Positions 22,862 through 27,056 of a stretch of 64,000 nt of DNA are shown here, piece by piece. Position numbers and translations under genes: made by a program. The stretch's first letter is position 1. Each line of letters begins with the position of its first letter. The stretch is from an uncultured Arthrobacter sp. Lineage in GTDB: Bacteria > Actinomycetota > Actinomycetes > Actinomycetales > Micrococcaceae. The notes under the pieces were generated by a model, which was not told the origin of the DNA, ran no database searches, and saw nothing but the letters and a program-made list of their open reading frames with translations. The stretch is taken from positions 1 through 64,000 of the forward strand of contig NZ_CADCTE010000156.1 in the NCBI RefSeq assembly GCF_902805515.1, given 5' to 3'.

Positions 22862-22889
22862 GGGCGGCGACTACCGACAGGGAAAAAAG

Positions 22890-22907
22890 ATCAGTAGGCT
22901 TACTGAT
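22890..22907. promoter_or_regulatory. TAAG-N3-GCTTA-like motif site a (ATCAGTAggctTACTGAT palindrome)
   Basis: 46 nt upstream of ATG 22949; one mismatch to the shared motif. Confidence 0.55.
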
Positions 22908-22948
22908 GAAGGATGGACAGTGCGCCCACCGCAACGAGAGGTGAAACC

Positions 22949-23365
22949 ATGACCGAAGAGAACCTCCCCGACGAGGACCTCACCATCATCACCGACGACG
23001 AGCTCGAAGTGGAGGAAAGGTCGCTGGCCGACCTGGATCCGCTGACCGGGGAGGACGCTGACCTGTACCCGGGCGCGGCGGAGGACAACCCGGACCGGTG
23101 GCAGGAGGACCCGCTGCTCCAGGGCGAAGGGTACGACGAAGAGGATGACTCGCGGCTCACCGACCAGATCCTCCGCGACGAAACTGCGCGGGCACGGTGG
23201 GAGCACGGTGACGAGCAGATCCCTCCGGACGTCCCCACGCTGGGAGAGGCCTCCGACGACGTCGACTTCGGCATCGGCGAGGACGACGAGGTGGACTCGA
23301 GCGACGATCCCTCCAACAGCGGCGGATCGCCGCTGAGCCATCTCGACGACAAGGACCTCCAGTAG
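22949..23365 (+). CDS. small acidic hypothetical protein
   Basis: MTEENLPDEDLTIITDDELEVEERSLADLDPLTGEDADLYPGAAEDNPDRWQEDPLL..., RBS agagg upstream. Confidence 0.8.
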   Translation: MTEENLPDEDLTIITDDELEVEERSLADLDPLTGEDADLYPGAAEDNPDRWQEDPLLQGEGYDEEDDSRLTDQILRDETARARWEHGDEQIPPDVPTLGEASDDVDFGIGEDDEVDSSDDPSNSGGSPLSHLDDKDLQ

Positions 23366-23388
23366 GCATCCAGTCGAGTTGCCCGCGC

Positions 23389-23425
23389 GACGGCGGCCGC
23401 CCCTTTGGAGAGGCGGCCGCCGTCG
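23389..23425. terminator. GC-rich hairpin between convergent genes
   Basis: CGACGGCGGCCGCC-cctttggag(a)-GGCGGCCGCCGTCG. Confidence 0.75.
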
Positions 23426-23441
23426 TCGTTCCGGAGCGGGA

Positions 23442-23858
23442 TTAGTACGAAATCAGTTCGACGAGGTCGCCCACCCGGTCCTCCGGGTAGTTGCGGGCGA
23501 TGTCGGCCTGGCTGATCACCCCGACGAGGTCGTGCCCGTCGATCACGGGCAGCCGCCGGACCTGATGGTCCTGCATGGTGCGGATCGCCTCCTCAACGGT
23601 GTCGTCGGCGCCGATGGTCACCGGCTTGCCCTGAGCGAGGTCACCGGCCGTGACACTGGCTGGGTCGCCTCCGTCCGCCAGGCACCTCACCACGATGTCG
23701 CGGTCCGTCAGCATGCCCTTGAGCCGGCCGTCCTCGCCGCAGATCGGGAGCGACCCAACATCGAGGTCCCTCATCTTCACTGCCGCCTGCTGCAGGGTGT
23801 CCTTCTCGCCCACGCATTCGACGCTGCCGGTCATGATGTCTCGCGCTGTAGTTGGCAT
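23442..23858 (-). CDS. CBS-domain pair protein
   Basis: MPTTARDIMTGSVECVGEKDTLQQAAVKMRDLDVGSLPICGEDGRLKGMLTDRDIVVR... two CBS domains. Confidence 0.95.
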   Translation of the reverse strand: MPTTARDIMTGSVECVGEKDTLQQAAVKMRDLDVGSLPICGEDGRLKGMLTDRDIVVRCLADGGDPASVTAGDLAQGKPVTIGADDTVEEAIRTMQDHQVRRLPVIDGHDLVGVISQADIARNYPEDRVGDLVELISY

Positions 23859-23925
23859 AACGCTCTCCTTCCTGCTTGGGTGCGCCGCGCCGGTGGACGC
23901 GGCCGCGGGCTCCGGAAACGAACCG

Positions 23926-23938
23926 TAAGCCTGCTTAG
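23926..23938. promoter_or_regulatory. TAAG-N3-GCTTA motif site b (minus: CTAAGCAGGCTTACGG)
   Basis: Upstream of CBS protein start. Confidence 0.55.
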
Positions 23939-24015
23939 CAGTATCCGCCCACCCGCGTCCGAAGCAAAGAAGTCCGAGGGGTTTTCCTTCGAGCGGCGGC
24001 TCCGTAGACTGACCA

Positions 24016-24028
24016 TAAGGGAGCTTAC
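24016..24028. promoter_or_regulatory. TAAG-N3-GCTTA motif site c (ATAAGGGAGCTTACTT)
   Basis: 36 nt upstream of ATG 24065. Confidence 0.55.
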
Positions 24029-24064
24029 TTTCTTCCTTCTTCATCGAAAGGACCGGTAGCGGCT

Positions 24065-24232
24065 ATGTCAGATTCCCCCGATCAGGAACGCGCCCACACC
24101 GAGGAGCCCGCTGAAGGCGACCTTGGGTCCGACTCCACGGACATCCGCCAGCGGGCGCAGGATGCAGCCGAAGGAGAGGATTCGGCCGAGGAGTATTCCG
24201 GTGGGGGCAGCGCCGGCGCGGCGGATTCCTGA
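24065..24232 (+). CDS. 55-aa acidic small protein
   Basis: Not in supplied ORF list; ATG with upstream gaaaggac; MSDSPDQERAHTEEPAEGDLGSDSTDIRQRAQDAAEGEDSAEEYSGGGSAGAADS. Confidence 0.65.
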   Translation: MSDSPDQERAHTEEPAEGDLGSDSTDIRQRAQDAAEGEDSAEEYSGGGSAGAADS

Positions 24233-24393
24233 AAAGGCCGGCCTGGGGCGCTGCCTTCGACCGGCGCCGGTCTTAAAGCTCCATCCGCCCGTCATTCTTG
24301 CGGTCTGCGCTTTCCAGTGCCCGGCCGCGATGGTAAACCGTACGTACCTCCCGCAGGCTGCGCCGGGGACGGCGCACGAGCACACAGAGAAAG

Positions 24394-25560
24394 GTGCTGC
24401 CAATGACCCACGCACTGAAGGACCACGCCAACCTCTACAAGCTCCCCGGACCGTGGACCACGATCTACGTTGACGGAAGCACCGGCACAGTCGACTCTTT
24501 CGCGAGTGACGACATCCTCCCCCGCAGTGTCGCGGATGCGATGGAGCAGGCGGGCGCGCCGAAGGAAGATATCAAGGCAGCCACAGCGGCTCTTTCGAAA
24601 ACGGCAAAAGGCCTCCCCGATCCTGTCTCCCGGTTTATCCTGGTTCACGGCGGCGAGGCAGCCATCGACGATTTCCTCCCCGGCGGACTTGTCACCGGCG
24701 AGCCGGTGATTGCCGTGGGACCGATCCCTGACCTGAGTCCGCTCCTCCGACACTGCCCTGAAGGATTCCCCTACGTCGTCGCCGAGGTGGGCCGGGACGG
24801 CGGGGAGGTCTACCTGAGGCATGCCGACAGGACCTGGGGCGGGCCGAACCGCGGCGAACCAGTGGCCCACATCGAAGGCGACACCGAACACATGCGCAAG
24901 GTCCACGCCGGCGGCTGGGCCCATGGGCGGTACCACCACCACGCGGAAAAGGTTTGGAAATCCAATGCGGCTGAGGTGGCAGCCGAAATCGACACGGTGG
25001 TCTCCGCTACCCGGGCGAAACTTGTCGTAGTCTCCGGGGACATCAGGGCCCGCCAGCTCGTTGCTGACCAGGTCTCCGAAGAAACCCGGTCACTGCTGAG
25101 CGTCGTCGACAGCCACACGCGCACGGGCGGATCCGACAATGAAACGTTCGCCCTCCAGGTGGACCAGCTCGTCACGAGGGTCATGGCCGACCGCCAGCAT
25201 CAGCTGCTGGAGCGGCTCGCCGAACAGGAAGGACAGGCGACCAGGACCTCAGCCGCAGGAATTGGCGCTGTTGTTGCGGCACTCCAGCAGGCCCAGGTCG
25301 AAACGCTACTGCTCGAATCGACGGCCTGGGACAACCGCACACTGCTCGCCCTCGACGCCGCTCCGTGGGTAACGACGTCCCCGGAGGAGACCGCCGGAGC
25401 GTCGGTGCTCGGCTCGGTGCCCGCCCTTGCCGCGATCCTCCGCGCAGCGGCGCTCACCGACGCAGACACGGTGCTCTACCCTCCGGGCGCGCTCGATTCG
25501 AAGCCGATCGCAGCCCTGCTGCGCTGGCCCACCGGGCCGGCCGTCCCTGCGGCGACCTAG
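24394..25560 (+). CDS. baeRF2-type release-factor/peptidyl-tRNA hydrolase-like protein (Vms1/Rv2629-like)
   Basis: 388 aa; PYVVAEVGRDGGEVYLRHAD, GGWAHGRYHHHAEKVWKSNAAEVAAEID, LVVVSGDIRARQLVADQV. Confidence 0.85.
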   Translation: MLPMTHALKDHANLYKLPGPWTTIYVDGSTGTVDSFASDDILPRSVADAMEQAGAPKEDIKAATAALSKTAKGLPDPVSRFILVHGGEAAIDDFLPGGLVTGEPVIAVGPIPDLSPLLRHCPEGFPYVVAEVGRDGGEVYLRHADRTWGGPNRGEPVAHIEGDTEHMRKVHAGGWAHGRYHHHAEKVWKSNAAEVAAEIDTVVSATRAKLVVVSGDIRARQLVADQVSEETRSLLSVVDSHTRTGGSDNETFALQVDQLVTRVMADRQHQLLERLAEQEGQATRTSAAGIGAVVAALQQAQVETLLLESTAWDNRTLLALDAAPWVTTSPEETAGASVLGSVPALAAILRAAALTDADTVLYPPGALDSKPIAALLRWPTGPAVPAAT

Positions 25561-25571
25561 GTTCAGGGCCC

Positions 25572-25619
25572 ACACACAGCGGGACTCCCCAGCATCGGCT
25601 GGGGAGTCCCGCTGTGTGT
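25572..25619. terminator. strong hairpin after baeRF2-like gene
   Basis: Perfect 22-bp stem ACACACAGCGGGACTCCCCAGC, loop atcg, GCTGGGGAGTCCCGCTGTGTGT. Confidence 0.9.
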
Positions 25620-25664
25620 CGTCCGACTGCGTGTCGTCCGGCGTAGTTAGTCAGGCACCTACCT

Positions 25665-25777
25665 GCCGCTGCCGCGGCCGAACCTATTTGCCGCTGTCGC
25701 GGCCGAACCTATTTGCCGCTGCCGCGGCCGAACCTATTTGCCGCTGTCGCGGCCGAACCTATTTGCCGCTGTCGCGG
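25665..25777. repeat. 25-bp tandem repeat (about 4.5 copies)
   Basis: gccgctg[c/t]cgcggccgaacctattt repeated at 25665, 25690, 25715, 25740 and partially 25765. Confidence 0.95.
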
Positions 25778-26136
25778 CGGCGGGTGTCGACGTCAGGATC
25801 GAGCTCGTCGGCCTTGCGGGCGTGGTTCATCGTTTCTTCCCGCAGGCCCTGGGCGTCCGTCTGGCGCTCCGAGGCCTGACGGCGGAGCCGCTCGGCCTCC
25901 ACCTCGGCACGCTGCGCCTCGGCCTCAGCCATGGTTGCCTTGGCTTCGCGTTCACGCGCCTCGAGTTCCGTCTCCTGGGCCTGCTCCCGAATTTCGGCTG
26001 CCTGCCGTCGGCCCTTTTCCTTCTGTCGCTCAACGTGGGCCTGCCGGCGTTTCCGGCTCAGCGCTACCACCACTCCGATCACCGCCAGCACGACGATGAT
26101 CCCAACAATGATCCAGATCAGTTGACTTGTCTCCAC
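25759..26136 (-). CDS. single-TM protein with charged coiled-coil cytoplasmic region
   Basis: METSQLIWIIVGIIVVLAVIGVVVALSRKRRQAHVERQKEKGRRQAAEIREQAQETELEAREREAKATMAEAEAQRAEV...; its stop codon lies in the tandem repeat. Confidence 0.85.
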   Translation of the reverse strand: METSQLIWIIVGIIVVLAVIGVVVALSRKRRQAHVERQKEKGRRQAAEIREQAQETELEAREREAKATMAEAEAQRAEVEAERLRRQASERQTDAQGLREETMNHARKADELDPDVDTRRRDSGK

Positions 26137-26205
26137 TGCCCGTTCACCTTCCCTGTCGCCTTTGACGTGCGCGGTGCCTCATTCAATGTGCTGGAGCCCG
26201 GCGGA

Positions 26206-26409
26206 TTAACCGCCGAGGCCACCAAGACCGCCAAGACCGCCGGGCAGCTTGCCCAGGAGGTCCTGCGGATCGATGCCGAGCTTGGCGAGGAGTCCCGCGT
26301 GCTGCTCGGTGTCTACAGTGTCGGGTAGCTCGGACTCGGCCTGGCCCGCCTTATCCGAATTGCCCTGCGACTTCAACAGCTCAATGATTTGTGATTTATC
26401 GATGTTCAT
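26206..26409 (-). CDS. 67-aa hypothetical protein with LGGLGGLGG tail
   Basis: MNIDKSQIIELLKSQGNSDKAGQAESELPDTVDTEQHAGLLAKLGIDPQDLLGKLPGGLGGLGGLGG; RBS ggagg. Confidence 0.8.
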   Translation of the reverse strand: MNIDKSQIIELLKSQGNSDKAGQAESELPDTVDTEQHAGLLAKLGIDPQDLLGKLPGGLGGLGGLGG

Positions 26410-26467
26410 AGTTCCTCCGTTGCTCGGACGTCCAGACCTTGGACGCCGGTTCGAAAAACTGGAATAC

Positions 26468-26480
26468 TAAGCACGCTTAC
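26468..26480. promoter_or_regulatory. TAAG-N3-GCTTA motif site d (CTAAGCACGCTTACTG)
   Basis: Upstream of the 26409 minus-strand gene. Confidence 0.55.
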
Positions 26481-26549
26481 TGAGAGCATTGCACACCCCC
26501 TGCTGATTGTCACGGGCGTCAACCCTTCGAAGCTGGCACAATTCCTGCC

Positions 26550-27056
26550 ATGCCAACCTCCCTGTTGATCCTTTCGGACACCCATATCCCCTCCCGCGCG
26601 AAAACCCTTCCCGAAGGCCTCTGGCCCGCGGTCGAAAGCGCCGACCTCGTGGTTCACGCCGGAGATTGGACGGACATTTCATTCTTCGAAGAACTTCGCG
26701 ACCGCTCCCGGCGCCTCCTGGGCTGCTACGGCAACAACGACGGCGACGCCCTGCGGGCCAAACTGCCGCTCGTGGCACGGGAAGAGATCGAGGGGCTCCG
26801 CTTCGCCGTCGTCCATGAGACGGGCGCAAAGACCGGGAGGGAACAGCGGATGGACCGCGAATTCCCCGGAACGGACGTGCTGGTCTTCGGTCACAGCCAC
26901 ATTCCATGGGATACCGTCACCGGTGCCGGCATGAGACTGCTGAACCCGGGATCCCCGACCGATCGACGGCGGCAGCCGCACTGCTCGTACCTGACGGCAA
27001 CCGTCGACGGCCACCGGCTCGACGTCGACCAGCACCTCCTGCCGGTCCGGGCCTGA
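26550..27056 (+). CDS. YfcE/MJ0936-type metallophosphoesterase
   Basis: LILSDTHIPSRAKTLPE, VHAGDWTD, GCYGNND, VFGHSHIP, LLNPGSPTDRR. Confidence 0.95.
   Translation: MPTSLLILSDTHIPSRAKTLPEGLWPAVESADLVVHAGDWTDISFFEELRDRSRRLLGCYGNNDGDALRAKLPLVAREEIEGLRFAVVHETGAKTGREQRMDREFPGTDVLVFGHSHIPWDTVTGAGMRLLNPGSPTDRRRQPHCSYLTATVDGHRLDVDQHLLPVRA

What the first reader, a model, noticed from the sequence alone, without database searches (positions are those of the whole stretch)
22890..26480. Repeated promoter motif TAAG-N3-GCTTA before four neighbouring small/CBS genes: possible undescribed stress mini-regulon
Seen directly: TCAGtagGCTTACTGA (22891), TAAGcagGCTTACGG (minus strand, 23926-23938), TAAGggaGCTTACTT (24016) and TAAGcacGCTTACTG (26468). 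Each lies about 36-67 nt upstream of a gene start: acidic protein 22949, CBS protein 23858, 55-aa acidic peptide 24065, and GLGG-tailed 67-aa protein 26409. I did not find the same strict motif in front of other genes while reading the window. Sites a, b and d are near-palindromic (e.g. TAAGC-N2-GCTTA), suggesting a dimeric regulator. Inference: these small acidic, CBS and glycine-tail genes are co-regulated, plausibly in stress or stationary phase. I do not recognise the motif as a named regulator box.
Basis: partly seen in the sequence, partly recalled or inferred. Interest (0 to 1): 0.68.

Follow-up and report, generated by a model that had tools for sequence, protein, structure and literature searches.

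The report
MarR-type stress regulon in Arthrobacter
The repeated DNA motif is real and is the binding-site-like mark of a genus-wide set of stress-protection genes in Arthrobacter-type soil bacteria, most likely controlled by a self-regulating MarR/SlyA-like protein that nobody appears to have described.

Summary
The motif is real, and it is not a four-gene mini-regulon but the local part of a genome-wide one. It is enriched across the genus and in several other Micrococcaceae genera, not elsewhere in the order. The full consensus is a 20-bp dyad, ATAGTAAGC-N2-GCTTACTAT, before general-stress-type genes: CsbD, Mn-catalase, PRC-barrel/DUF2382, GSP39-like dehydrogenase, BrkB/YihY. Tandem copies sit 23-24 bp apart. 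I propose the regulator: a cysteine-free MarR/SlyA-like protein encoded behind the motif-bearing PRC-barrel gene, with its own motif copy upstream. Its subfamily is present in 26 of 27 family genomes with at least 4 motifs; SlyA's published box TTAGCAAGCTAA differs at one base per half-site. A SigB promoter element is disfavoured. Binding, direction of regulation and signal are untested.

The parts
22887..22906 (+). site a, AAGATCAGTAGGCTTACTGA, 47-58 nt before the acidic-protein start; weak match (score 13.9)
   Evidence: present in L079 and L080, no site in L246-L248; TCAG class not enriched
22949..23365 (+). acidic 138-aa protein, no Pfam or NCBIfam family
23442..23858 (-). two-CBS-domain protein, 138 aa
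   Evidence: PF00571, 9.7e-29
23922..23941 (-). site b, full dyad TAAGCAGGCTTA, about 68-79 nt before the CBS gene start (score 21.5)
   Evidence: unchanged in L079 and L080
24012..24031 (+). site c, TAAGGGAGCTTACTT, 38-49 nt before the 55-aa acidic protein start (score 21.2)
   Evidence: equivalent sites before the homologue in L246-L248; lost in L079 and L080
24065..24232 (+). 55-aa acidic protein, no family
24403..25560 (+). baeRF family 2 (release-factor-like) protein; no site here, but its homologue has one about 57 nt upstream in L246-L248, and in G076 (L232) a relative of it lies beside an autoregulated MarR gene
26206..26409 (-). 67-aa protein with Gly-rich tail, target of site d
26464..26483 (.). 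site d, full dyad ATACTAAGCACGCTTACTGA between the 67-aa gene (-) and the phosphoesterase gene (+); score 28.0
   Evidence: dyad arms invariant in five relatives while flanks diverge; same gene has a site in another genus (L082)
26550..27056 (+). metallophosphoesterase, divergent from site d, possibly also controlled
   Evidence: PF12850, 2.6e-27

Best explanation
The motif is the operator (ATAGTAAGC-N2-GCTTACTAT, often in tandem at 23-24 bp) of a homodimeric winged-helix regulator of the MarR/SlyA kind. The best candidate is the protein I call MarR-A (own genome G000:C1:33305-33721, minus strand), encoded directly behind the PRC-barrel/DUF2382 gene and carrying its own operator. It probably sits on or next to the -10 region of general-stress and envelope genes, including the window genes at 23858, 24065 and 26409, and is released by a small-molecule signal so that the set is switched on together. 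Shown: motif, enrichment, non-coding location, conservation, tandem spacing, target genes, MarR linkage and auto-site. Inferred: that MarR-A or its paralogues bind the motif, that the effect is repression, that the signal is a ligand, and that stress is the condition.
For: Enrichment; same genus 430 matches against 159 reversed controls in 25 genomes, other families of the order 6 against 50 (sums). Location: 17 of 19 own-genome places outside gene bodies, and the two called coding by the script lie before known gene starts; reversed control 7 of 20. Targets: CsbD, Mn-catalase, PRC-barrel/DUF2382, SDR, BrkB, cyclase-like, DUF6480, DUF1508, RecQ-type helicase; in relatives also Dps-like and pyridoxamine-oxidase-like proteins (read by eye). 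Conservation. Tandem spacing 23-24 bp in 18 of 38 close pairs. Regulator: MarR gene behind the motif-bearing PRC-barrel gene in g1 loci and, more distantly, in G047 and G122 of g24; auto-site scoring 22 with its own upstream region in the own genome, orthologous weaker sites in further g1 genomes and independent ones in g19, g24, g46, G005 and G009; 14 of 53 MarR upstreams reach score 10, shuffles rarely. Co-distribution: MarR-positive genomes mean 3.49 motifs against 0.37 in negatives (Mann-Whitney 3e-12), 26 of 27 motif-rich genomes positive. Fold: MarR Pfam hit; AlphaFold pLDDT 87 matching DNA-bound MarR, MepR and OhrR. SlyA box.
Against: No binding or expression data. Several genera (g20, g30, g40, part of g17 and g41) have a subfamily member but few motifs. 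The bcp-linked paralogue MarR-B lacks a good auto-site in most genomes. Species are related, so co-distribution p-values overstate independence. Other transcription-factor families were not profiled. The position relative to the -10 element varies, and part of the TANNNT signal may simply be palindrome extension.
Confidence: 0.72

Rival explanations
1. The motif is a real operator, but its regulator is a different transcription factor; the MarR genes are only further members of the regulon.
For: Other regulator genes also carry a site in single genomes: a SigB-like factor (L033), TetR-like (L156), ArsR-like (L141), another MarR (L077). Some MarR-positive genera lack the motif.
Against: None of those recurs across the genomes seen, whereas the MarR linkage and auto-site recur in several lineages. 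The dyad has the layout of a MarR/SlyA box.
Confidence: 0.22
2. The motif is a promoter element read by a SigB/F/G-type sigma factor (general-stress sigma).
For: Target genes resemble SigB regulons (own knowledge); the genome has a SigB-type factor (L190); TA at the 3' end is followed by T at -10 spacing in 53 of 92 sites.
Against: The motif is symmetric, with one-sided sites in both orientations (35 and 25), unlike a directional promoter. Motif-bearing G069, G166, G157, G141, G072 and G009 lack a strong SigB match, and genus g21 has several SigB-like matches per genome and no motif.
Confidence: 0.04
3. Chance clustering of an AT-rich palindrome.
For: Site a is weak and its class is not enriched.
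Against: Shuffle test, reversed-pattern controls, non-coding bias and cross-genus conservation.
Confidence: 0.02

Closest known systems
SlyA regulon (Salmonella/E. coli), MarR family
   Same: 12-bp dyad with 5-bp half-sites around 2 bp: TTAGC-AA-GCTAA against TAAGC-NN-GCTTA; auto-site 22 bp upstream of slyA (PMC5797941); same fold family
   Different: Second base of each half-site; only remote sequence similarity (E 8.6e-7 to solved SlyA; below the SlyA equivalog cut-off); counter-silencing of H-NS has no known counterpart here; target genes differ
OhrR/MosR/AbfR redox MarR repressors
   Same: MarR fold, among the closest DNA-bound structures, stress genes
   Different: MarR-A has no cysteine, and 46 of 53 subfamily members have none, so a thiol switch is unlikely
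SigB general stress regulon
   Same: Kind of target genes (CsbD, catalase, Dps-like, GSP39-like; own knowledge)
   Different: Dyad operator instead of a sigma promoter; distribution does not follow SigB
CrtR of Corynebacterium (PMC5401885)
   Same: Actinobacterial MarR regulator
   Different: Controls carotenoid genes; only title and abstract seen here

Membership tests
MarR family regulator (protein) | MarR winged-helix domain | tested here: met
   PF01047 5.9e-12, above cut-off; model pLDDT 87, matches MarR/MepR/OhrR
MarR family regulator (protein) | Binds a palindromic operator as a dimer | not testable with these tools
   Dyad symmetry fits; no binding data
MarR family regulator (protein) | Autoregulation | tested here: inconclusive
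   Sequence only: site upstream of MarR-A and in several other lineages; absent from most MarR-B genes; no expression test
SlyA (equivalog) | NCBIfam SlyA model above its cut-off | tested here: not met
   36.5 bits against cut-off 120
OhrR-type thiol switch | Reactive cysteine | tested here: not met
   MarR-A has no cysteine
SigB-type promoter regulon | Motif tracks a SigB/F/G factor | tested here: not met
General stress regulon (function) | Co-induction under stress | not testable with these tools
   Gene content only

The most novel reading that the evidence does not exclude
In Arthrobacter-type Micrococcaceae the general stress response is organised by a family of autoregulated, cysteine-free MarR/SlyA-like regulators acting through one operator, rather than by a SigB-type sigma factor; lineages without the sigma factor keep the operator regulon.
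Probability: 0.35. Interest if true: 0.75.

Novelty: new member of a known kind. Interest (0 to 1): 0.58.

Why it matters
Arthrobacter and relatives are known for surviving drought, cold and starvation (own knowledge), yet I found no described general-stress regulator for them in the papers searched. A defined operator, a candidate regulator and a gene list make that directly testable, and give many uncharacterised small proteins, including those in this window, a shared context.

Tried and rejected
SigB-type sigma factor as reader of the motif: rejected by distribution. -10 element reading: TANNNT follows the dyad in 53 of 92 sites, but the mirror base is also frequent (40 of 92), so it is at least partly palindrome extension. 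Single-genome regulators next to sites (TetR, ArsR, other MarR): not recurrent. L012 site before an iron-type transporter gene: looks like an overlapping IdeR/DtxR-like box, probably coincidental (by eye). TCAG variant as a full class: not enriched. The genome-contig search with the baeRF protein gave only two loci.

Full report
Observation. The four sites exist as written. In the 64-kb window the pattern is strongly over-represented (6 against 0.36, no shuffle with 6) and all matches fall in the 22.9-26.5 kb cluster. Site a is the odd one out: TCAG instead of TAAG, matrix score 13.9 against 21.5, 21.2 and 28.0 for b, c and d.

Genome and relatives. In the own genome (3.74 Mb, 207 contigs) TAAGNNNGCTTA is found at 19 places, or 24 strand-wise matches, against 6 for the reversed pattern. 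Summed over 25 same-genus genomes it is 430 against 159; over 14 genomes of other families of the order it is 6 against 50. Within the family it is rich in genera g46, g24, g1, g19 and g33, moderate in g22, and near absent in most others. Own-genome places lie outside gene bodies in 17 of 19 cases, and the two exceptions come from over-extended ORF calls (they lie before the RecQ-type and CBS starts); reversed-pattern places in the same genus do so in 7 of 20.

The element. 155 sites give the consensus ATAGTAAGCATGCTTACTAT, with C/G next to the invariant TAAG/CTTA and often only one of the two kept. Both orientations of one-sided sites occur before genes (35 and 25, with 32 symmetric), as for a homodimer. 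Neighbouring sites prefer 23-24 bp spacing, 18 of 38 close pairs, which would put two dimers on about the same DNA face.

Targets. In the own genome: PRC-barrel/DUF2382, Mn-catalase and its divergent partner (two sites), CsbD, SDR of the GSP39 type, BrkB/YihY with a divergent epimerase, polyketide-cyclase-like, DUF6480, DUF6098, DUF1508, RecQ-type helicase, small acidic proteins, and the window genes. Relatives repeat most of these and add Dps-like, pyridoxamine-oxidase-like, DUF2231-like and photolyase-like genes (the last set named by eye). That these are stress genes is established knowledge of the families plus inference; no expression data were available.

Site d: in five relatives TAAGC and GCTTA stay invariant while the flanks diverge, and the same gene has a site in genus g24 (L082). 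Site c: equivalent sites before the homologue in three distant same-genus genomes, but mutated in the two nearest relatives, Arthrobacter crusticola (L079) and Arthrobacter sp. MSA 4-2 (L080). Site b: unchanged in the two nearest relatives, where the flanks vary; I found no CBS homologue in the other three loci. Site a: present in the two nearest relatives only. In the three distant genomes the release-factor-like gene next door (24403 here) has a site as well.

Regulator. Behind the motif-bearing PRC-barrel gene lies a MarR-family gene in the own genome and in other g1 genomes, and a more distant MarR in G047 and G122 (g24). In the own genome a terminator-like hairpin (by eye) separates the two, and MarR-A has its own upstream region with the site ATAATAAGTATGCTTCCTAT about 77 nt before its start (score 22, best of 40 shuffles 2.3). 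That site does not fit the strict pattern used to build the matrix, so it is an independent hit. Orthologous weaker sites occur in further g1 genomes, and sites stand upstream of other subfamily members in g19, g24, g46, G005 and G009. A subfamily member (E below about 1e-28) is present in 59 of 151 family genomes; these average 3.49 AGTAAGNNNNCTTA matches against 0.37 in the rest, and 26 of 27 genomes with four or more matches have it. The genus-level test gives p = 0.004. Genomes are related, so these are indicative, not independent, counts. SigBFG factors do not follow the motif. Weaker relatives of MarR-A occur in other families of the order, where the motif is not enriched.

Mechanism. 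MarR-A is predicted with good confidence as a MarR winged helix, closest to E. coli MarR, MepR and OhrR structures, several of them DNA-bound. It lacks cysteine, which argues against a thiol switch and for a ligand (inference). SlyA's published consensus TTAGCAAGCTAA has the same geometry. Repression is favoured because in RecQ-type, YpfJ-like and L054 promoters the dyad lies so close to the start codon that it must overlap the core promoter or start site (inference), and because MarR proteins are mostly repressors (own knowledge); an activator role at other targets is not excluded.

Novelty. No paper in the searched library describes this regulon; subscription literature is mostly missing. 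As a kind of system it is ordinary: a MarR-type regulon. As a biological finding it is a large, conserved, apparently undescribed stress-type regulon with a candidate master regulator.

Noticed in passing
L190 (own genome C96); L186: A bcp peroxiredoxin gene, a divergent MarR-B and a SigB-type sigma factor form a locus; MarR-B is 58% identical to MarR-A.
   Followed up: partly
L226:2435-2890: A third paralogue, MarR-C (68% identical), with a weaker dyad about 99 nt upstream.
   Followed up: partly
L033: A SigB-like sigma gene has two motif copies 99 bp apart upstream, hinting that the regulon may feed into a sigma factor in that genome.
   Followed up: no
L217, L220, L221: In genus g30, which has MarR-B but no TAAG motif, the MarR-B promoter carries a TCAG-N4-CTGA dyad next to a -10-like box: possible drift of the operator.
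   Followed up: partly
window 26484-26550; L246-L248: A 10-mer TTGTCACGGG between site d and the phosphoesterase start is conserved or nearly so in five relatives; perhaps a second element.
   Followed up: no
window 25660-25780: Several tandem copies of a roughly 30-bp unit (gaacctatttgccgctgtcgcggcc) at the end of the 125-aa membrane/coiled protein gene.
   Followed up: no
G094, G069, G151, G135: Genus g46 genomes show many AGTAAGG-type sites (AGTAAGGTCCCTTA and the like), a possible genus-specific variant of the half-site.
   Followed up: no
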